Assembly: GCF_000018865.1 (NCBI RefSeq)
Contig: NC_010175.1
Location: 372,001-436,000 of the forward strand
DNA length: 64,000 bases
Reading direction: 5' to 3'
From: Chloroflexus aurantiacus J-10-fl
GTDB taxonomy: Bacteria; Chloroflexota; Chloroflexia; Chloroflexales; Chloroflexaceae
Shown here: positions 29,290-59,100 of the stretch, one piece after another
Numbering within the stretch: the first letter of the stretch is position 1
How the letters are laid out: each line of letters opens with the position of its first letter
Notes under the pieces: model-generated
The model's input: the letters and a program-made list of their open reading frames with translations, nothing else
The model's database searches: none
Told to the model about the DNA's origin: nothing
Program-made: the position numbers and the translations under genes

Positions 29290-29460
29290 GACAAGTTCAT
29301 ATCGTCGCGGTGACCCGTTGGCCCGGATGCCAGGGCGTAAAGGTGGAAGCTGGTGCAAGTCCAGCGCTGTGCCGCAACTGTAACCGGTTAGAAAGCCGGA
29401 AGCCAGGACGCCTGCCGCGATGTGATGATGTTCGGCCCTTCTCGAGCTAAGGAGGAGAAC
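29290..29460 (+). promoter_or_regulatory. Cobalamin (B12) riboswitch
   Basis: The conserved core is visible: GCTGGTGCAAGTCCAGCGC and CCGCAACTGTAACCGG (about 29350-29387), then the B12-box-like AAGCCAGGACGCCTGCC (about 29400-29416). A final helix runs toward an AAGGAGGAG sequence. It precedes a corrinoid-type ABC importer operon, as expected. A short TTCTC...GGAGAA stem (29440-29459) could hide the ribosome-binding site of the small ORF that follows, so control may be translational, transcriptional (terminator at 29503) or both. Confidence 0.93.
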
Positions 29461-46087: not shown

Positions 46088-46787
46088 CTCGTGCATACCG
46101 CGCCACACCCGGCCTCCCCGTCTGGCAGCGCAATTGAGAACGACCACCCCATCCGCAATGGCAAGGTGATCGGGAACACGCAACGTCTGTAGGGGCAGGT
46201 TTTGAACCCGCCCCTACCTGCCAATGCCCGACACGCGATCCACCACGTCCCCTATTCATCCCCTCGTGCATATCGTGCCACACCTGGCATCCCCGTCTGG
46301 CAGCGCAATTGAGAACGACCACCCCATCCGCAATGGCAAGGTGAACGGGAACACGCAACGTCTGTAGGGGCAGGTTTTGAACCCGCCCCTACCTGCCAAT
46401 GCCCGGCCCGCGATCCACCACGTCCCCTATTCATCCCCTCGTGCATATCGTGCCACACCCGGCATCCCCGTCTGGCAGCGCAATTGAGAACGACCACTCC
46501 ATCCGCGATGGCAAGGTGATCGGGAACACGCAACGTCTGTAGGGGCAGGTTTTGAACCCGCCCCTACCTGCCAATGCCCGGCATGCGATCCACCACGTCC
46601 CCTATTCATCCCCTCGTGCATATCGTGCCACACCCGGCATCCCCGTCTGGCAGCGCAATTGAGAACGACCACCCCATCCGCGATGGCAAGGTGATCGGGA
46701 ACGCGCAACGTCTGTAGGGGCGGGTTTTGAACCCGCCCCTACCTGCCAATGCCCGGCCCGCGATCCACCACGTCCCCTTTCGCCCCC
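46088..46787. repeat. Four tandem copies of a 175-bp repeat
   Basis: Units at 46088-46262, 46263-46437, 46438-46612 and 46613-46787 are more than nine-tenths identical by eye and exactly 175 bases long. Partial ends lie on both sides. Each unit contains a hairpin GTAGGGGCRGGTT / AACCCGCCCCTAC. The repeat ORFs on the minus strand are repeat translation, not genes. Confidence 0.92.
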
Positions 46788-46965
46788 CTCGTTCGCCGCA
46801 TCCCGCGTAGTTATAGATGGTGCCACTGCTGACGGTATCTCCCTGTCCGTTCGGATCGTACCGGTAATACCCCCGGACTTTGCCGATGGAAGGGCCAGTC
46901 ATAGATCACCGCGCATTATTTCCGGCGTGGATTTACGACATAGCTTCTCCACCAGGACTATTCAC

Positions 46966-46994
46966 TTGACACAATTAGCGACTCCTGATATATT
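46966..46994 (+). promoter_or_regulatory. Promoter of the lysine operon
   Basis: TTGACA (46966-46971) and TATATT (46989-46994) are 17 bases apart. The -10 lies inside a 15-base direct repeat, GATATATTCGTGGCA, at 46987-47001 and 47010-47024, which could be a regulator site. Transcription would start near 47001, 26 bases before the leader peptide. Confidence 0.8.
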
Positions 46995-47026
46995 CGTGGC
47001 ATTGTAAGAGATATATTCGTGGCACT

Positions 47027-47095
47027 ATGAGAAACGTGAATCTTTTCGCCAAGCAGAACAAGCAAGCGAAGAAGCCGGACGAGAGGTCTGGTTAG
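47027..47095 (+). CDS. Lysine-rich leader peptide (22 aa)
   Basis: ATG at 47027, TAG at 47093-47095. Codons 9-16 read K-Q-N-K-Q-A-K-K, so four of eight are AAG lysine codons, the last two adjacent. This is what a leader that senses charged tRNA-Lys looks like. Only a weak ribosome-binding site is visible (AAGAG about 16 bases upstream). It lies upstream of competing hairpins in the leader of the lysine-biosynthesis operon. Confidence 0.7.
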   Translation: MRNVNLFAKQNKQAKKPDERSG

Positions 47096-47165
47096 CTCTG
47101 CTTGTCTGCTGTGCGTAAGAGACAAGACCCGGCTCACCAGACCTACGGTGCGCCGGGTCAATTGT
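47084..47165 (+). terminator. Attenuator with competing hairpins
   Basis: Antiterminator: AGGTCTGG (47084-47091) pairs with CCAGACCT (47137-47144), enclosing a small stem CTTGTCT/AGACAAG (47101-47107/47120-47126). Terminator: GACCCGGC (47126-47133) pairs with GCCGGGTC (47152-47159) and is followed by AATTGTTTGT. The first structure traps one arm of the second. A ribosome stalled on the Lys codons (47051-47074) leaves 47084-47091 free; one that reaches the stop codon covers it. The T-run is weak. Confidence 0.7.
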
Positions 47166-47181
47166 TTGTACGGAGGGAAGT

Positions 47182-47292
47182 ATGAAACACATTGCTAGCG
47201 TCAGCCCAATCGCCTACACGCCACGCTATTGCCGGCCAGAACTCTTTGGCTCCTGTCAAGTGAGAGAGGTGCTGATCTATGTCACTGCCTGA
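47182..47292 (+). CDS. Small ORF ahead of homocitrate synthase (36 aa)
   Basis: ATG 47182 has a strong CGGAGGGAAG site, and its TGA at 47290-47292 lies 14 bases inside the homocitrate synthase gene. No motif is visible; it contains two Cys and several Tyr. It may only serve to bring ribosomes to the next start (translational coupling). Confidence 0.45.
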   Translation: MKHIASVSPIAYTPRYCRPELFGSCQVREVLIYVTA

Positions 47293-48406
47293 GCGCTTGT
47301 TTTTTGTTGATACGACATTGCGCGAAGGCGAACAATTCGCCAGCGCTCGCTTTACAACTGCTCAACGAATTGCCATTGCTGAAATGCTCGACGCCTTTGG
47401 CGTAGAGTATATCGAACTCACCTCCCCTGCTGCCTCACCACAAAGTGCGCGTGATCTTGCAACTATCGCCCGTCGCGGTTTACGTGCCCGCATCCTCACC
47501 CATATCCGCTGCCATATGGCCGATGCTCGGCTCGCTGTTGAACACGGCGCGCAGGGTGCAAATCTGCTCTTTGCCACGTCCGAACCGTTACGCACGGTAA
47601 GCCACGGTCGCAGCCTGAGCGAAATCCTGGCTGAGGCCAAACGTGTGATCTGCTATCTCCGTGACCACGACATTGAAGTACGCTTTTCGTGCGAAGATAG
47701 CTTTCGTACCGACCTCGCCGATCTGATCCGTATTTACCGCGCCGTTGAAACAATGGGTGTGCAACGGGTCGGTCTGGCTGATACGGTGGGCATCGCCACC
47801 CCACGCCAGGTCTACGACGTGGTGCGGGCAGTACGTAACGAAGTACAGTGCGACATCGAATTTCACGGCCACAATGATAGCGGCTGCGCAATTGCCAATA
47901 CCTTCTCGGCCTATGAGGCCGGTGCAACGCATCTTGATGTGACGGTACTCGGCATCGGTGAACGGAATGGGATCGCCAGTTTGAGTGGTATGATTGCGCG
48001 CATCGCCAGCATTGATCCATCCCGCGTGCAACGCTATCGCCTCGATCTGCTGCCCAAAATTGATGAGACGGTTGCAACGATGCTCGGCATTGAGATTCCG
48101 TTCAACCAGTGTATTACCAGTCCGACCGCGTTCCACCACAAGGCTGGGATGCATACCAAAGCGGTGTTGAGCGACCCGCGCAGCTATGAAGTGCTTGATC
48201 CCAATCTGTTCGGTCGGCAGCGCACTATCGCGATTGCCCATCGGCTGGTTGGATGGCACGCTGTCGCCGAACGTGCGCGTGAACTGGGCATTACGCTCAG
48301 CGAAGCCCAGGCCCGTGCTGCCGCTGCCCGGATCAAGGCACTCGGTGACGAACACGATCTTGATGGCGCAATGATTGACGAGATTCTCTATAGCTACGCA
48401 GAGTAA
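47279..48406 (+). CDS. lysS: Homocitrate synthase, AAA lysine pathway (375 aa)
   Basis: Condenses 2-oxoglutarate and acetyl-CoA, the first and usually lysine-inhibited step of the alpha-aminoadipate route. HMGL-like TIM barrel with DTTLREGEQFA (residues 11-21) and metal ligands in EFHGHNDSG (about 196-204). The short C-terminal part SPTAFHHKAGMHTKAVL (about 283-299) is typical of homocitrate rather than 2-isopropylmalate synthases, which carry a longer regulatory domain. Downstream lysW, lysX and lysY genes settle the pathway. GAGAGAGGTG precedes the ATG. Confidence 0.9.
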   Translation: MSLPERLFFVDTTLREGEQFASARFTTAQRIAIAEMLDAFGVEYIELTSPAASPQSARDLATIARRGLRARILTHIRCHMADARLAVEHGAQGANLLFATSEPLRTVSHGRSLSEILAEAKRVICYLRDHDIEVRFSCEDSFRTDLADLIRIYRAVETMGVQRVGLADTVGIATPRQVYDVVRAVRNEVQCDIEFHGHNDSGCAIANTFSAYEAGATHLDVTVLGIGERNGIASLSGMIARIASIDPSRVQRYRLDLLPKIDETVATMLGIEIPFNQCITSPTAFHHKAGMHTKAVLSDPRSYEVLDPNLFGRQRTIAIAHRLVGWHAVAERARELGITLSEAQARAAAARIKALGDEHDLDGAMIDEILYSYAE

Positions 48407-48421
48407 GGGGAGGATACGGCT

Positions 48422-49678
48422 ATGCCAACGATGAGCGAGCAAATTTTGAGCCGTGTCGCCGGGCGGACGGTGCGCGCCGGTGATGTGGTGACGGCAAACG
48501 TTGATCTGGTGATGGTGCACGATAGTCTGGCCCCCGGTATTATTCGCATCTTGCATCAAGAGTTAGGTGCAGAACGGGTCTGGGATCCGCAACGGGTCGC
48601 CGTCGTGATCGATCACGTCGCCCCCGCCGCCAGTGTCCAGACCGCCGAGAAGCAGCAAGAGGTGCGGCGCTGGGTACGTGCTCAGGGCATTCCTCATCTG
48701 TTTGATGTTGGGCGTGGCATCTCGCACCCGGTGCTGGTCGAGGAAGGGCTGGCCCAGCCGGGGATGCTCATTCTGGGGAGTGATAGCCACAGCACGGCCT
48801 ATGGCTGCGTGGGTGCGTTTGGTACCGGAATGGGCAGTACCGATATTGCCCTGGCGCTGGCCACCGGCAAGACATGGCTGCGCGTACCTGAAACAATTGT
48901 TGTCCGGGCACGCGGTAGGTTTGGATTTGGCGTTGGCCCCAAAGACCTGGCGCTGCGTGCGGCCCGTTTGCTGCGTGCCGATGGCGCAACTTACGCCGCA
49001 ATTGAATGGCACGGTGTCGAATTCCTGAGTGTGATGGAGCGTATGACGCTGGCGACACTTTCAATTGAAATGGGAGCAAAAGCCGGCATTGTGCCGCCGA
49101 CCGGTCTCAATGTCACCGGCCCGCTCTTGCCCACAGTCACCGCTGATGCCGGCTATCAGGAAGTGGTTGAGATCGATCTCGACCAGCTTGAACCACAAGT
49201 CTCAGCTCCCCATTACGTTGACAACGTCGCCAACCTCAGCGATCTGGGTCGGGTCGCAGTTGATGTCGTGTACCTCGGCACCTGCACCAACGGTCATTAT
49301 GAAGATATGGCAGTTGCCGCCCAGATTCTGGCCGGACGCCGACTCGCGCCGGGTGTGCGCATGATTGTGGTACCAGCAAGTGCGCAGGCCCTGCAGCGTG
49401 CTGCTGCCGATGGCACACTCGCGACGCTCCTGGCTGCCGGTGCCACCATCGGCACACCGGGATGCGGTGCCTGCATCGGTCGTCACATGGGAGTCCTTGC
49501 CCCAGGCGAGGTCTGTCTGTTTACCGGCAACCGCAACTTCCGTGGTCGGATGGGTAGCCCTGAAGCGCAAATCTATCTGGCATCGCCGGCGGTTGCCGCA
49601 GCCACAGCACTTACCGGCTATCTAACTGATCCGCGCACGGTGATGGATGGACAACCGGCTATCGCTTCCCGTAACTAA
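48422..49678 (+). CDS. lysT: Homoaconitase large subunit (418 aa)
   Basis: Isomerises homocitrate to homoisocitrate with the small subunit. Aconitase/IPM-isomerase fold with [4Fe-4S] ligands in YLGTCTNG (about residue 286) and TPGCGACIGRH (about 348-358), and the early segments MSEQILSRVAG and GSDSHSTAYGCVGAFGTGMGS (broken here; about 118-139). GGGGAGGATACGG precedes the ATG, 15 bases after the previous stop. Sequence alone does not separate it from LeuC; the operon does. Confidence 0.88.
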   Translation: MPTMSEQILSRVAGRTVRAGDVVTANVDLVMVHDSLAPGIIRILHQELGAERVWDPQRVAVVIDHVAPAASVQTAEKQQEVRRWVRAQGIPHLFDVGRGISHPVLVEEGLAQPGMLILGSDSHSTAYGCVGAFGTGMGSTDIALALATGKTWLRVPETIVVRARGRFGFGVGPKDLALRAARLLRADGATYAAIEWHGVEFLSVMERMTLATLSIEMGAKAGIVPPTGLNVTGPLLPTVTADAGYQEVVEIDLDQLEPQVSAPHYVDNVANLSDLGRVAVDVVYLGTCTNGHYEDMAVAAQILAGRRLAPGVRMIVVPASAQALQRAAADGTLATLLAAGATIGTPGCGACIGRHMGVLAPGEVCLFTGNRNFRGRMGSPEAQIYLASPAVAAATALTGYLTDPRTVMDGQPAIASRN

Positions 49679-49700
49679 GTGAAGAAAGAGAGGTATCGCT

Positions 49701-50201
49701 ATGGCTCGCGTGTGGCTCTTCGGCCCCGATATCAATACCGACCAGATCGTACCCGGTCGCTACGCACCCTACATGCTGAAAGACGAGAGTGAATTACGGC
49801 GCTATCCGTTTATCGAGCATCGGCCAGATTTTGCGGCCAATGTGCGACCGGGCGACATCATCGTAGCCGGCAAGAACTTTGGTTGCGGCAGTTCGCGTGA
49901 ATACGCCCCGCTGGCGCTGCGAATGGTGGGTATCGGCGCGATTATTGCTCCCCTCTTTGCCCGCATCTTCTTTCGGAATGCGCTCAATCTTGGCATTCCA
50001 TGCTTTACCGCCGATCTTACCGGCGAGCTAGCCGATGGTGATGAGGTTGAACTTGATCTGGAACAGGGCCGTATCACAACCGCCGATGGGCGCGTGATTC
50101 ATCTGCCACCGCCACCGCTCTTCTTGCGAGAAGTCTGGGCGGCGGGAGGGATTGTGCCCTTTTACCGTACCTACGGACGTTTTCCCGGTGAGGTGGCCTG
50201 A
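49701..50201 (+). CDS. lysU: Homoaconitase small subunit (166 aa)
   Basis: Swivelling-domain partner of the large subunit. Contains INTDQIVPGRY (about residues 11-21), the conserved KNFGCGSSREYAP loop (about 59-71) and the FARIFFRNALNLGIP segment. Length is typical. GAGAGAGGTATCG is ahead of the ATG. Its TGA overlaps the next ATG by one base (TGATG), so homoisocitrate dehydrogenase is coupled to it. Confidence 0.9.
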   Translation: MARVWLFGPDINTDQIVPGRYAPYMLKDESELRRYPFIEHRPDFAANVRPGDIIVAGKNFGCGSSREYAPLALRMVGIGAIIAPLFARIFFRNALNLGIPCFTADLTGELADGDEVELDLEQGRITTADGRVIHLPPPPLFLREVWAAGGIVPFYRTYGRFPGEVA

Positions 50202-51199
50202 TGCAGATCTGTGTTATTCCCGGCGATGGGATCGGCCCGGAAGTCATAGCCGTGGCAACTGCGGCCCTGCGTGTGCTGGCACCCGATCTGACCATCAAAG
50301 AGGCAGAAGCGGGATGGGCTGTCTTTCAGCGCACCGGTACGGCACTTCCTGAAACAACCCTGGCTCTGGCGCGTGAGGCGACGGCGATCCTCTTTGGTGC
50401 GGTCGCGTCACCAAGCCATCCGGTTCCCGGTTATCGCAGTCCGATTGTCGAGTTGCGGCGCACCCTCGACCTTTACGCCAATATTCGACCAACCGTGGGC
50501 AATGAGGTTGACCTGGTGGTTGTGCGTGAAAACACCGAAGACCTGTACATCGGGCGGGAACGGTTAGAAGATGATGGCGCGACCGCCATTGCCGAACGTG
50601 TCATTACCCGGGCCGCCTCGGCCCGGATCGTGCGTACCGCCTGCGAACTGGCTCGCACGCGCCAGGCTTACGGCCATCCCGGCAAAGTGACTATCGTCCA
50701 CAAAGCCAATGTCTTGCGGGTCAGCGACGGTCTTTTCCGCACGGTAGCGCTCGAAGTCGCCGCCGATTATCCCGAACTGACCTTCGAGGAACGGCTGGTT
50801 GATGTTGCGGCCATGCAACTCGCTGCGCAACCGCAACGATTTGACGTGATCGTAACCACCAACATGTTCGGCGATATTTTGTCGGACATTGCCTGCATTC
50901 ACGGCGGTGGATTGGGCGTTGCCGCCAGCAGTAATCTCGGCCATGGCCGGGCGTTGTTTGAACCAGTGCATGGTGCAGCGCCCGACATTGCCGGACGGGG
51001 AATCGCTAATCCAACCGCAGCACTCAATTGTGTCGTAATGCTGCTCGACTGGATCGGGCGTCCGCATGCGGCGGAACGCCTCCGTTCTGCCATCACGGCT
51101 GTGGCGGCTGCCGGCATTCGTACACCCGATGTCGGTGGTCAGGCAACCACCCGCGAAGTCGCCGATGAGATTCTTAACCAGTTATCTGCTCAGATGTGA
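50201..51199 (+). CDS. hicd: Homoisocitrate dehydrogenase (332 aa)
   Basis: Oxidatively decarboxylates homoisocitrate to 2-oxoadipate. Beta-decarboxylating dehydrogenase with [10 protein letters not shown] at the start, the substrate loop [18 protein letters not shown] (about residues 84-101), [12 protein letters not shown], the metal-binding [11 protein letters not shown] (about 225-235) and the nucleotide motif [18 protein letters not shown]. The arrangement fits the short bacterial HICDH/IPMDH group. Two LysW genes follow at once. Confidence 0.9.
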
Positions 51200-51213
51200 A
51201 AGGAGAATCAGCC

Positions 51214-51381
51214 ATGCACGCCGAATGCCCTGAATGTGTTGCCCAGATTACCTTACCTGCCAGCACGCTGGAGAGCGAAATTGTCGCCTGTCCCGACTGT
51301 GGTGCTGAGCTGGAAGTCGTCAGTCTCAACCCACCCACACTTGCGCTGGCGCCAGAGGTCGAAGAGGATTGGGGCGAATAG
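51214..51381 (+). CDS. lysW: LysW amino-group carrier protein, copy 1 (55 aa)
   Basis: Tiny acidic carrier whose C-terminal Glu is attached to alpha-aminoadipate, protecting its amino group during lysine synthesis. Two Cys pairs (CPEC at 5-8, CPDC at 26-29) form a zinc ribbon, and the tail EDWGE is the signature acceptor end. This copy has Val9 after the first Cys pair, where the second copy has Gly. AAAGGAGAA precedes ATG 51214. A second complete copy follows 43 bases later. Confidence 0.93.
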
Positions 51382-51424
51382 CCAGATCGTCCGTGATGAT
51401 CACTACATCAGAAGGAGTAAACCC

Positions 51425-51592
51425 ATGCAAGCTGAATGCCCTGAATGTGGCGCAACCATCGCCTTACCCGCCGGAACCATGGCCAATGAGATCGTCGCCT
51501 GCCCCGATTGTGGCGCAGAGCTGGAAGTCGTGAATCTTGATCCGCCCACCCTCGCGCTGGCGCCTGAAGTCGAAGAGGATTGGGGCGAATAG
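51425..51592 (+). CDS. lysW: LysW amino-group carrier protein, copy 2 (55 aa)
   Basis: Same length and architecture as copy 1: CPEC at 5-8, CPDC at 26-29, EDWGE end. Most differences lie in residues 2-20 and the last half is almost identical, so this is a tandem duplication with both copies intact. AAGGAG lies before the ATG. The zinc ribbon here has the usual CPECGA. Having two carriers beside one LysX is unusual in my experience of this cluster. Confidence 0.93.
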
Positions 51593-51654
51593 GAATAGTT
51601 GTTCAGTGCGGAGTCGTCGTCCACGACTCCGCTCACTGCCAGGGAGAAACCATT

Positions 51655-52503
51655 ATGCGCATTGCTGTTCTTTGTTCGCGGATTCGCGCTGAAGAAAAAC
51701 TGCTCTTCCAGGAGCTGGAGCGCCGTGGTCTCGATTATGTCAAAGTTGACGACCGCGAGCAGATTTTTGATCTGCATACCACAACCTATCCCTTCGATGT
51801 TGTACTTGAGCGCTGCATCCAGCATAGCCGGGCCCTCTACATGCTCAAAATCTTCAACGATGCCGGCGTGCCTACGGTCAACACCTATCACGTAGCGCTC
51901 ACCTGTGGCGACAAATTCCTGACCACGCAGGCCCTTATTCATGCCGGCGTCCCCACACCACGCTGCCTGCTGGCATTCACCCCGGAAAGTGCCCTCGAAG
52001 CCATGGAGCAACTCGGCTATCCGGTTGTGCTCAAGCCGGTGATCGGCTCGTGGGGGCGGATGGTGAGCAAGATCAATGATCGCGATGCTGCCGAAGCCAT
52101 TCTCGAACATCGTGATGTTCTGGGCAACTATCAACACTCCATTTTTTACATTCAGCAGTACATTCACAAACCGGGGCGCGACATTCGCAGCTTTGTGATC
52201 GGCGATGAGTGTATCGCCGCAATTTACCGCACCAGCCCGCACTGGATCACCAACACTGCACGCGGTGGCGTTGCCACCAACTGCCCGGTTACCCCAGAAC
52301 TGGCCGACATCAGCGTGCGTGCTGCCCACGCCGTCGGCGGTGGGGTAGTGGCGATTGACTTGCTGGAAACGCCCGAAGGTGAGCTGCTGGTTAATGAAGT
52401 CAACTACACCATGGAGTTCCGCAATAGTATCGACACCACCGGCGTTGATATTCCGGCCCGGATTATCGACTATGTGCTAGAGGTTGGGCGCGGGCGCGGC
52501 TAG
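51655..52503 (+). CDS. lysX: LysW-aminoadipate ligase LysX (282 aa)
   Basis: ATP-grasp enzyme that joins alpha-aminoadipate to the C-terminal Glu of LysW. Recognisable parts: [17 protein letters not shown] near the start, [20 protein letters not shown] (about 74-93), [16 protein letters not shown] (the ATP-binding loop, about 125-140), and the magnesium site [13 protein letters not shown] near residue 250. Length is typical of LysX. AGGGAGAAACC precedes ATG 51655. It does not show an ArgX-specific feature that I can name. Confidence 0.92.
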
Positions 52504-52632
52504 CGTACCACACAGGATAGATTTCAGCACAGACGAAGAGCGAATGTCTGCTGACGGCCAGACTCCGACGGATTACAACCTGTTTGCAGGACTACCACCC
52601 AGCAGAGTTGGCCGTTGTACGCAAGGTGTTGT

Positions 52633-53667
52633 ATGAGCTTACGAGTCAGCATTGTGGGGGCAAGCGGTTATGTCGGCGGAGAACTCCTCCGCCTCCTGCT
52701 CGATCATCCCCACGTATCAATCATACAGGCTACCAGTGCCCGCAATGCAGGACGGTATCTCTACCAGGTACATCCCAACCTGCGCGGACGCACCAACCTG
52801 CAATTCGTCCACCCTGACACCCTGCAGCCGTGTGATGTGCTCTTCCTGGCCCTCCCACACGGCGAAGCAGCTCAGGCTATTGAACGCTACGCCAGCCTGG
52901 CCGAACGGATCATCGACTGTTCAGCCGATTTTCGCCTGCGCGATCCGGCAGTGTACCAGCAATGGTACGGGAGCGCTCACCCGGCTCCGGCATGGCTCGA
53001 ACGCTTCGTGTATGGGCTGCCCGAAGTTAATCGGGCGGCGCTGACCGGTGCTCGCTACGCCAGTGGGGTTGGCTGCAACGCCACAGCCACCAACCTTGCC
53101 CTGTTGCCACTGGTTGAAGCGAACCTGATCGACCGCAGTCGCCCGATCATTGCCGACGTGAAAGTCGGCTCATCGGAAGGTGGGGCCACCGTTAACGAAG
53201 CCAGTCACCACCCCGAACGGTCTGGTGCGGTACGCTCCTTTGCGCCGGTGGGACATCGCCACCTCGCCGAAGTCGAGCAAGTGACCGGCCTGCGCAATGT
53301 GCATCTCTCAATTACTGCCATTGAGCTAGTGCGTGGCGCACTGGCAACAGTTCACGCTTTCGCCAGTCGCGAACTGAGCGAGAAGGAACTCTGGCAGGCC
53401 TACCGGACATTTGCCCGCGAACAGCCGTTCATTCGTATCGTCAAAGAGCGGCAGGGCATTTACCGCTATCCAGAACCAAAGATTCTGGCCGGCACCAACT
53501 ACGCCGACATCGGCTTCGCGTATGAACCGGCGACCGGGCGGATTGTGAGTATCTGTGCTATCGACAACCTGATGAAGGGTGCTGCCGGCAGTGCCGTGCA
53601 ATGTATGAACCTGATGTGCGGCTTTGCGGAGACGACAGCCTTGACATTTGCCGGTTTACATCCGTAA
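52633..53667 (+). CDS. lysY: LysW-aminoadipyl phosphate reductase LysY (344 aa)
   Basis: NADPH-dependent reductase of the ArgC family making the LysW-bound semialdehyde. VSIVGASGYVGGELLRLL is the Rossmann start (residues 5-22). The catalytic Cys lies in SGVGCNATATN (about residue 150), where ArgC proteins have GCYPT; the NAT variant fits LysY. The gap of 129 bases after lysX holds no gene. The kinase (lysZ), aminotransferase (lysJ) and hydrolase (lysK) are not in the window. Confidence 0.9.
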   Translation: MSLRVSIVGASGYVGGELLRLLLDHPHVSIIQATSARNAGRYLYQVHPNLRGRTNLQFVHPDTLQPCDVLFLALPHGEAAQAIERYASLAERIIDCSADFRLRDPAVYQQWYGSAHPAPAWLERFVYGLPEVNRAALTGARYASGVGCNATATNLALLPLVEANLIDRSRPIIADVKVGSSEGGATVNEASHHPERSGAVRSFAPVGHRHLAEVEQVTGLRNVHLSITAIELVRGALATVHAFASRELSEKELWQAYRTFAREQPFIRIVKERQGIYRYPEPKILAGTNYADIGFAYEPATGRIVSICAIDNLMKGAAGSAVQCMNLMCGFAETTALTFAGLHP

Positions 53668-57451: not shown

Positions 57452-57469
57452 GAGATTAGACAATCGATT

Positions 57470-57519
57470 GGGTGATGAGGCTCACCCTCAACTGCCATTA
57501 CGGCTGATAGCCTCTACAG
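57470..57519 (+). promoter_or_regulatory. Fluoride riboswitch (crcB motif)
   Basis: P1 is GGGTGA/TCACCC (57470-57475/57482-57487) with loop TGAGGC, which can form the known pseudoknot with GCCTC at 57510-57514. Then come AACTGCC and GGCTGATAGCCTCTAC, the conserved 3' half with its GCTGATRGCCTCTAC core. The order and bases follow the structurally studied Thermotoga fluoride aptamer almost throughout (from memory). Its 3' strand is also the 5' arm of the terminator, so ligand binding should allow read-through. Confidence 0.95.
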
Positions 57520-57552
57520 GGAAACGTTTTCTCTGTAGAGGCTTTTATTTTT
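57510..57552 (+). terminator. Riboswitch-controlled terminator
   Basis: GCCTCTACAGGGAAA (57510-57524) pairs with TTTTCTCTGTAGAGGC (57527-57542) and is followed by TTTTATTTTT. The first eight bases belong to the aptamer, so aptamer and terminator exclude each other. Gene start is 20 bases further on. Confidence 0.95.
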
Positions 57553-57573
57553 GAATCGATAAGAGGCATGATC

Positions 57574-59096
57574 ATGGTTTCGCTCAGTATTCTTCACTAC
57601 CACGACGGTCTCCAAACAGAAGCAACCAGCCAGCCTGATTTCTTTCCCGATCTAAACCTGGATCAGGTGGTAGAAGCCATCACAAAACCCGGACAGGAGT
57701 ACAACTTACAACCCTTTTTCTGGACTCCCTTACGCGATGCTCAAGCCGTCCGCTACCGGCAAGAGGTGTTTCAGGACCTGGAAAAAGCTCCTATCCTGGA
57801 AGCTATCAAGCAGTTTGCGGAAGGTATGAGGGTGGTGCGACGTTATCTGGCGATGATGGAGCAACTTAACTTTGCCGATCACAGAAAGGGGTGGCTCCTG
57901 GAAGCAGCCCTGGTCTATTGTGACACCGTAACAACTCTGGCTCGCCATCTCGTCGATCTTCCCTTGAGGTCGAATGGCCTTTCGACTTTCCGAGAACATC
58001 TGACAACCTGCATTCAGTCACCGGCATTCCGTTCCCTGGCTACCGATAGTCAACACGTCAAAAACGCCCTGGCTGCCATCAAGTATAGCGTGATTATCGA
58101 GAGTGGCAAGTTCAGCGTAAAGCGCTACGAGGGCGAGGTAGATTACAGCTCGGAAGTGGAACATGTCTTCAGCAAGTTCAAACAACGTGATGCCCAGGAT
58201 TATCTGGTACACCTTCCAGAAAGAGCTGGAATGAGTCACATTGAGGCCAAGATCCTCGAGTTCGTCGCCAGGTTATATCCCGAACCCTTCGAGGAGCTAG
58301 ACCGCTTCTGTACGGAGCATAACCAGTTTCTCGACGAGACCATTCGCACGTTCGACCGCGAGATTCAGTTTTACGTGGCTTATCTGGAATATATCGCCGA
58401 CCTCAAACGTCAGGGGCTACCCTTTTGTTATCCTCACGTCAGCGCAACGAGTAAAGCAGTCTATGTACGCGATGGCTTCGATCTGGCCCTGGCTCATGCC
58501 TGGCGTTACGAACAGAAGACTATCACGCTGAACGATTTCTTCCTGACAGGCCCGGAACGCATTCTCGTCGTCACCGGACCCAATCAGGGAGGGAAGACGA
58601 CATTTGCTCGGATGTTTGGGCAGTTACATTATCTCGCTAGCCTCGGCTGCCCTGTTCCGGGCCGGGAAGCAGGTCTGTTCCTGGCCGACCGCATCTTTAC
58701 CCATTTCGAGCGCATAGAGGATAGTCAAAATCTACGGGGAAAACTGGAAGATGATCTGGTCCGTATGCACAGAGCACTCATCCAGGCTACCCCTGACAGC
58801 ATCTTCATCCTGAACGAAATTTTCTCCTCCACCACTGTTCAGGATGCACTTTTTCTAAGTAAGGAAATTATGGCCCGGCTGACGGATCTGGATGTTTTGG
58901 GTGTTTGGGTGACGTTCCTCGACGAACTGGCTTCGTTGAGCGAGAAAATGGTCAGCATGGTGGCATCGGTAGACCCCAATGATCCCGTCAGACGCACATT
59001 CCAGATCATTCGCAAACCCGCCGATGGGTTGGCCTATGCTCTTTCATTGGCTCGTAAACATGGGCTGAGCCGTGAACAACTTCAGGAGCGAATACG

Positions 59097-59100
<4 letters not shown>
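57574..59100 (+). CDS. MutS-like ATPase, first of a tandem pair (508 aa)
   Basis: C-terminal MutS ATPase fused to a helical MutS core/lever-like region (about residues 40-310), without the mismatch-reading N-terminal domain. Walker A TGPNQGGKTT (about 333-342). The Walker B region reads FILNEIFSST (about 410), with Asn where MutS proteins normally have Asp. The D-loop/signature part RGKLEDDLVRMHRA lies between. ATG 57574 fits the AAGAGG spacing better than ATG 57568. It is controlled by a fluoride riboswitch. Other MutS-like genes have been reported behind such switches, as I recall; the molecular role is unknown. Confidence 0.85.

What the first reader, a model, noticed from the sequence alone, without database searches (positions are those of the whole stretch)
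46966..47165. Lysine-codon leader peptide with antiterminator/terminator switch
Directly visible: a consensus promoter, a 22-codon ORF with four AAG codons in an eight-codon stretch, and an antiterminator (47084-47091 with 47137-47144) that traps one arm of a terminator (47126-47133 with 47152-47159). The stop codon lies 3' of the antiterminator arm, so ribosome position would decide the fold, as in classical attenuation. I recall lysine-responsive leader attenuation being described for the Thermus AAA cluster; a Chloroflexota version would be separate.
Basis: partly seen in the sequence, partly recalled or inferred. Interest (0 to 1): 0.85.

Follow-up and report, generated by a model that had tools for sequence, protein, structure and literature searches.

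The report
Lysine-sensing attenuator with conserved second peptide
The start of this bacterium's lysine-making operon carries a ribosome-operated off-switch that reads lysine codons; relatives carry the same switch, some re-coded for arginine, and between switch and first gene lies a second, unexplained conserved mini-protein.

Summary
At 47027-47095 a 22-codon ORF with four Lys codons precedes a terminator (47126-47138/47147-47159) and a competing antiterminator (47084-47096/47132-47144), upstream of the AAA-pathway lysine operon (hcs-hacA-hacB-HICDH-lysW-lysW-lysX-lysY) of a genome whose size matches Chloroflexus aurantiacus. The Lys-rich leader and switch recur upstream of hcs in 31 of 33 hcs-bearing genomes of the family. 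Related elements precede hcs in two sister families, hacA, lysX or a LysE-family gene in another, and stand in tandem pairs in two Caldilineae MAGs. The terminator shows covariation. The last Lys codon lies 15 nt (sometimes 16 or 18) from the antiterminator core; folding with a stalled ribosome frees the antiterminator, and a ribosome at the stop codon blocks it. Arg-codon versions of the same design precede argG and argJ, including in this genome. Lysine attenuation is a known kind (Thermus, from memory). The shared Lys/Arg design and the coupled peptide are new as far as I could check. Nothing is shown experimentally.

The parts
46966..46994 (+). sigma-70-type promoter, TTGACA-17-TATATT
   Evidence: TTGACA or TTGACG and a TATA-like -10 recur upstream of most leaders of the family
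46987..47024 (+). 15-nt direct repeat GATATATTCGTGGCA (46987-47001 and 47010-47024), duplicating the -10 region; absent in the other Chloroflexus genomes, where only about 10 nt separate -10 and leader ATG (near-leaderless)
   Evidence: alignment
47027..47095 (+). leader peptide ORF MRNVNLFAKQNKQAKKPDERSG*, Lys codons at 47051, 47060, 47069, 47072
   Evidence: conserved as [STA]KQxKRxKKPxxRSG* or close to it in 29 genomes
47059..47104 (+). helix P1: Lys-codon region 47059-47063 with 47100-47104 (forms when the leader is not translated)
   Evidence: 86% of cells pair, 22-47% in slid controls; no covariation above shuffles
47074..47092 (+). anti-antiterminator hairpin 47074-47080 with 47086-47092
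   Evidence: MFE; 90% of cells pair, 5-63% in slid controls; no covariation
47084..47144 (+). antiterminator: 47084-47096 with 47132-47144
   Evidence: 92% of cells pair, 21-37% in slid controls; two double changes only (arm nearly invariant)
47101..47126 (+). hairpin CTTGTCT/AGACAAG nested in the antiterminator loop; different sequence but still pairable in other genera (TGCAC/GTGTA)
   Evidence: read from alignment A2; not scored
47126..47169 (+). intrinsic terminator: 47126-47138 with 47147-47159, then AATTGTTTGT
   Evidence: 95% of cells pair, 19 double-changed cells against 7.2 in shuffles, 0/500
47182..47292 (+). ORF2, MKHIASVSPIAYTPRYCRPELFGSCQVREVLIYVTA*, with GGAGGG SD at 47172-47177; its end lies 14 nt inside hcs
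   Evidence: RPELFG invariant in 30 genomes, third codon positions variable
47279..48406 (+). hcs, homocitrate synthase (TIGR02146)
48422..53667 (+). rest of operon: hacA, hacB, homoisocitrate dehydrogenase, two tandem lysW, lysX, argC-type lysY

Best explanation
The region is a classical ribosome-mediated transcription attenuator for lysine, controlling the AAA/LysW lysine operon, followed by a second translated ORF that hands ribosomes on to hcs. When Lys-tRNA is plentiful the ribosome runs to the leader stop codon and covers the 5' arm of the antiterminator; the 3' arm then folds into the terminator and transcription stops before hcs. When Lys-tRNA is short the ribosome stalls on Lys codons 15-16; its leading edge lies just upstream of the antiterminator arm, the antiterminator forms first and RNA polymerase reads through. 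Without translation of the leader, the Lys-codon region folds on itself and termination is again favoured. Read-through RNA is translated first at ORF2 (strong SD), whose end overlaps the hcs start, so hcs is translated by coupling; the conserved RPELF peptide adds an unknown, probably regulatory, function. Shown here: sequence features, conservation, gene context, folding. Inferred: stalling, termination, lysine response, coupling.
For: Lys leader and helices upstream of hcs in 29 genomes, two more with altered leaders. Terminator covariation 0/500. Antiterminator pairs in 92% of cells; in L017 TCT to CTT changes the peptide (S to L) while the partner arm changes to keep pairing. Last Lys codon to TCTGG core is 15 nt in 28 of 29 leaders and 15, 16 or 18 nt in most outside the family, even where the stop codon lies elsewhere. 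Partition functions on nascent RNA: P(antiterminator) averages 0.98-0.99 with a stall at Lys 15 or 16 and 0.00 with a ribosome at the stop; in C. aurantiacus 1.0 against 0.0. RNA model R1 finds the element before hcs, hacA, lysX and LysE-family genes; every forward hit with E below 1e-5 in the class that I opened and that had downstream sequence lies before a lysine, arginine or LysE-family gene. The codon composition follows the downstream pathway: leaders before lysine genes mostly 3-5 Lys, leaders before argG/argJ 4-7 Arg and no Lys.
Against: No expression data. At equilibrium the terminator still wins once both arms are made, even with a stalled ribosome, so the switch must be kinetic. The U-tract in Chloroflexus is weak. 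P1 and the anti-antiterminator show no covariation beyond shuffles. Without a ribosome the antiterminator still forms in about half of the relatives' RNAs (mean 0.66 at 37 C), so the 'no translation' state is not uniform. Some relatives have lost Lys codons (G057a has two; G019 has an Arg-rich leader).
Confidence: 0.88

Rival explanations
1. A riboswitch or protein-binding attenuator that senses lysine directly; the ORF is incidental.
For: Strong conserved RNA structure upstream of lysine genes.
Against: No Rfam family matches, including the lysine riboswitch. The reading frame, Lys codons and their 15-nt spacing to the antiterminator are conserved while the sequence in front varies. Arg codons replace Lys codons in front of arginine genes.
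Confidence: 0.05
2. The terminator and leader are a constitutive, unregulated element, or the terminator of an upstream transcript.
For: Equilibrium folding favours the terminator in all states.
Against: Competing antiterminator conserved in 29 leaders and beyond; promoter directly upstream in the same direction; recurrence before different lysine and arginine genes.
Confidence: 0.05
3. ORF2 serves only as a coupling device and its peptide sequence does not matter.
For: Its end overlaps the hcs ATG by 11 or 14 nt in 30 of 30 Chloroflexaceae; the hcs SD lies inside ORF2.
Against: RPELFG has no amino-acid change in 30 genomes while every third position varies; RPELF is kept in Herpetosiphonaceae; RNAalifold finds no structure at the junction.
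Confidence: 0.3
4. ORF2 is a small stable protein acting in trans (for example on homocitrate synthase) rather than in cis.
For: Peptide-level conservation; occurs only with hcs.
Against: N- and C-terminal parts are variable, only about 14 residues are conserved, and the distance from RPELF to the hcs start is fixed at 46 or 49 nt in Chloroflexaceae, which suits a cis role.
Confidence: 0.2

Closest known systems
Thermus thermophilus lysine (AAA) cluster leader-peptide attenuation (Tsubouchi et al. 2005, from memory; not in the paper library)
   Same: Lys-rich leader peptide and terminator upstream of the hcs gene of an AAA/LysW lysine cluster
   Different: Different phylum. I could not compare sequences; whether Thermus has an ORF2, or shares this RNA design, is unknown
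E. coli trp/his/thr operon attenuators (general knowledge)
   Same: Leader ORF rich in the pathway's amino acid, ribosome position chooses antiterminator or terminator, protector hairpin when untranslated
   Different: Lys and Arg codons in one RNA design; second conserved coupled ORF; tandem attenuators in Caldilineae
Lysine riboswitch (RF00168)
   Same: Lysine-responsive control of lysine genes
   Different: No match in the window at gathering threshold, nor for 46900-47400 at E up to 1
Regulatory nascent peptides (SecM, TnaC, ErmCL type; general knowledge)
   Same: Short conserved peptide motif a fixed distance before the controlled gene
   Different: RPELF motif matches no such family known to me, no Pfam or NCBIfam hit; arrest untested

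Membership tests
Ribosome-mediated (classical) transcription attenuator | Short leader ORF with several codons for the end product of the operon | tested here: met
   Four Lys codons in codons 9-16; conserved in 29 genomes
Ribosome-mediated (classical) transcription attenuator | Intrinsic terminator between leader and first structural gene | tested here: met
   Helix with covariation 0/500; U-tract weak in Chloroflexus, better in most other genera
Ribosome-mediated (classical) transcription attenuator | Mutually exclusive antiterminator | tested here: met
   Arms share 47132-47138; 92% of cells pair
Ribosome-mediated (classical) transcription attenuator | Geometry: stall on the sensing codons frees the antiterminator arm, ribosome at the stop covers it | tested here: met
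   15-nt spacing in 28/29; nascent-RNA folding 0.99 versus 0.00
Ribosome-mediated (classical) transcription attenuator | Amino-acid-dependent read-through in vivo | not testable with these tools
   No expression data
Thermus-type lysine leader attenuation | Homologous leader and RNA in Thermus | not tested
   No Thermus hcs sequence could be fetched (one search names Thermus composti only as a control); paper not held
Lysine riboswitch | Rfam covariance model match | tested here: not met
Arrest peptide (ORF2) | Peptide-level conservation of a short motif at fixed distance from the regulated start | tested here: met
Arrest peptide (ORF2) | Ribosome arrest dependent on the motif | not testable with these tools
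   needs toeprint or ribosome profiling

The most novel reading that the evidence does not exclude
Chloroflexota use one reprogrammable attenuator design, re-coded for lysine, arginine and perhaps glutamine, and in Chloroflexaceae and Herpetosiphonaceae add a second tier: a nascent RPELF peptide that regulates hcs translation in cis, so that the first enzyme of the pathway is controlled by two successive leader peptides.
Probability: 0.3. Interest if true: 0.85.

Novelty: new variant of a known kind. Interest (0 to 1): 0.62.

Why it matters
It extends leader-peptide attenuation to a deep-branching phylum and shows natural re-coding of one RNA switch: the same antiterminator/terminator design reads Lys codons before lysine genes and Arg codons before arginine genes, both in the same genome. 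This makes codon specificity, ribosome spacing and switch evolution directly testable. The RPELF peptide is a concrete candidate for an undescribed regulatory peptide. Leaders before LysE-family genes predict a link between those transporters and lysine or glutamine supply.

Tried and rejected
Rfam search: only cobalamin and fluoride riboswitches in the window, nothing credible at the leader. Pfam/NCBIfam for ORF2: none. ORF2 in plasmids: only chance-level hits. ORF2-like hit in G382 (PELFGSCQVR): antisense to another gene, taken as chance. ORF2-hcs as a programmed frameshift fusion: the frame relation is constant, but hcs has its own ATG in every Chloroflexaceae genome, so coupling is simpler. 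Antiterminator covariation: too invariant to be informative. Weak R1 hits in Chloroflexus: several lie on the reverse strand of the attenuator itself; G000 3445552, L248, L249, L254 and L250 show no Lys or Arg leader, most looking like coding DNA. Simple DNA pattern for the antiterminator: no better than its reversed control apart from the known site. Soil Chloroflexi hcs (most of L039-L083 and L130-L167): no Lys leader found. Literature: no hit for Chloroflexi lysine attenuators.

Full report
What was checked. The window is part of a single-contig genome of 5,258,541 bases, the size of Chloroflexus aurantiacus J-10-fl (from memory). One correction: the arms as quoted do not overlap; the extended arms do (antiterminator 47084-47096/47132-47144, terminator 47126-47138/47147-47159), and that overlap makes them exclusive. 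The 170-nt leader folds far below shuffled sequence (z = -5.5). NCBIfam identifies the downstream genes as homocitrate synthase, homoaconitase large and small subunit, an isopropylmalate/homoisocitrate dehydrogenase, two LysW copies, LysX and an ArgC-type reductase, i.e. the LysW lysine operon.

Conservation. hcs is found in 33 of 41 family genomes. Twenty-nine have a 19-22 codon leader ending KKPxxRSG* or close to it, with Lys at three or four fixed positions; G017 and G019 have altered leaders; G004 and G025 could not be judged because of a contig end or a partial gene. Lys codons change between AAG and AAA while the amino acid stays; the second Lys codon is AAG in all 29 and lies in helix P1. 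The terminator has four pairs with changes on both sides, 19 cells against 7.2 in shuffles, 0 of 500. The antiterminator is nearly invariant, so it pairs (92%, slid controls 21-37%) without significant covariation. L017 is a telling case: the codon TCT is CTT, changing Ser to Leu, and the opposite arm changes too, keeping the pairs.

Geometry. The last Lys codon lies 15 nt before the TCTGG core in 28 of 29 leaders, and at 15, 16 or 18 nt in most Caldilineae, Herpetosiphonaceae, f3 and f4 leaders, although the stop codon sits before, inside or after the arm (the few values of 10 or 13 come from the pattern matching an earlier CTGG). This is what a stalled ribosome just clear of the arm requires. 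Partition functions of the nascent RNA agree: antiterminator probability 0.98-0.99 with a stall at Lys 15 or 16, 0.00 with a ribosome at the stop, at 37 and 55 C. With the full terminator transcribed, equilibrium favours the terminator in every state, so the decision must be kinetic.

Distribution. A covariance model from the 29 leaders (R1) finds the element in 70 of 158 genomes of the class at E <= 0.1, including weak and reverse-strand matches. Opened hits: hcs in f1, f2 and f3; hacA in f4, including a genome of 5,801,598 bases that I take to be Roseiflexus sp. RS-1; lysX in G059 and G057; a LysE-family gene (PF01810) in several f4 genomes. Beyond the class, two Caldilineae MAGs carry two tandem Lys attenuators before hcs, and G363 has MNSHGIQIDNKKKCKKQPYSRSG* before lysX.

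Arginine versions. R1 also hits upstream of argG (G030, G052, G055) and of a phosphatase-argJ pair in Chloroflexus (G008). Their leaders have Arg runs in place of Lys: SRRIRSRRQPVCWSG, TPRRLRRTQPDQTSG, TPRRRRTKPDTTSG, NRRHRRHSQPVTRSG. All eight Chloroflexus genomes have an Arg leader before this pair, in this genome MFTTFTVCICSHSRTAVFYDRRRHRRQPVTRTG*; gene identities. Leaders before arginine genes have no Lys in the scored segment and 4-7 Arg; leaders before lysine biosynthesis genes mostly 3-5 Lys and 0-2 Arg. Some LysE-family leaders are rich in Gln codons (G004, G028, G085, G300, G321); this is a lead only, the matches are weak.

ORF2. Between terminator and hcs lies ORF2 (47182-47292) with a strong SD. 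A profile finds it in 30 of the 33 hcs-bearing family genomes, in none of the eight without hcs, once per genome and always before hcs. A second profile also finds it in seven Herpetosiphonaceae. RPELFG shows no amino-acid change in 30 genomes while all third positions vary, so the peptide, not the RNA, is conserved; RNAalifold finds no structure at the junction. RPELF lies 46 or 49 nt before the hcs ATG and ORF2 overlaps hcs by 11 or 14 nt in all 30. I infer translational coupling. A ribosome paused just after RPELFG would cover the hcs SD, which makes a regulatory nascent peptide attractive but unproven.

Relation to known systems. By mechanism and by every feature I could test, the element is a classical ribosome-mediated attenuator. 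Lysine attenuation of an AAA cluster was, as I remember, reported for Thermus (Tsubouchi et al. 2005); neither the paper nor a Thermus hcs locus was available. PMC3766115 surveys cis-RNA regulons including Chloroflexi and does not use the term 'leader peptide'. PMC4833913 proposes reinitiation from leader genes in general, which fits ORF2, but is not about these genes. I rate the Lys element alone a new member, and the shared Lys/Arg design plus ORF2 a new variant of a known kind.

Noticed in passing
47182-47292: Second conserved small ORF (RPELF motif) overlapping the hcs start, no family match; restricted to Chloroflexaceae and Herpetosiphonaceae.
   Followed up: yes
L283 (G000:C1 about 4486000, outside the window): Arg-rich leader MFTTFTVCICSHSRTAVFYDRRRHRRQPVTRTG* with the same switch design before a phosphatase gene and argJ in the same genome.
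   Followed up: yes
L046 and L071, about 420 to 90 nt upstream of hcs: Two tandem lysine attenuators before one hcs gene in Caldilineae MAGs.
   Followed up: partly
L210, L211, L215, L233, L234; also G004, G028, G085, G300, G321: LysE-family transporter genes behind Lys-codon leaders (f4) or Gln-rich leaders (others); induction on starvation would be odd for an exporter.
   Followed up: partly
51214-51381 and 51425-51592: Two tandem lysW genes, both over the TIGR01206 cut-off.
   Followed up: no
46987-47024: Direct repeat doubling the -10 region, only in this genome; the other Chloroflexus leaders would be nearly leaderless mRNAs.
   Followed up: partly
57462-57523: Fluoride riboswitch just upstream of the ORF at 57568-59100, which looks like a MutS-family ATPase by eye.
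   Followed up: no
29291-29433: Cobalamin riboswitch.
   Followed up: no
46500-46770: Repeated intergenic segment (gatggcaaggtgatcgggaac...ggttttgaacccgcccctacctgcc) occurring twice.
   Followed up: no
L321 (G324): Weak R1 match with leader MPMRLPSPPEPEKPDRRSG* before a gene that looks like a metallophosphoesterase; amino acid sensed unclear.
   Followed up: no
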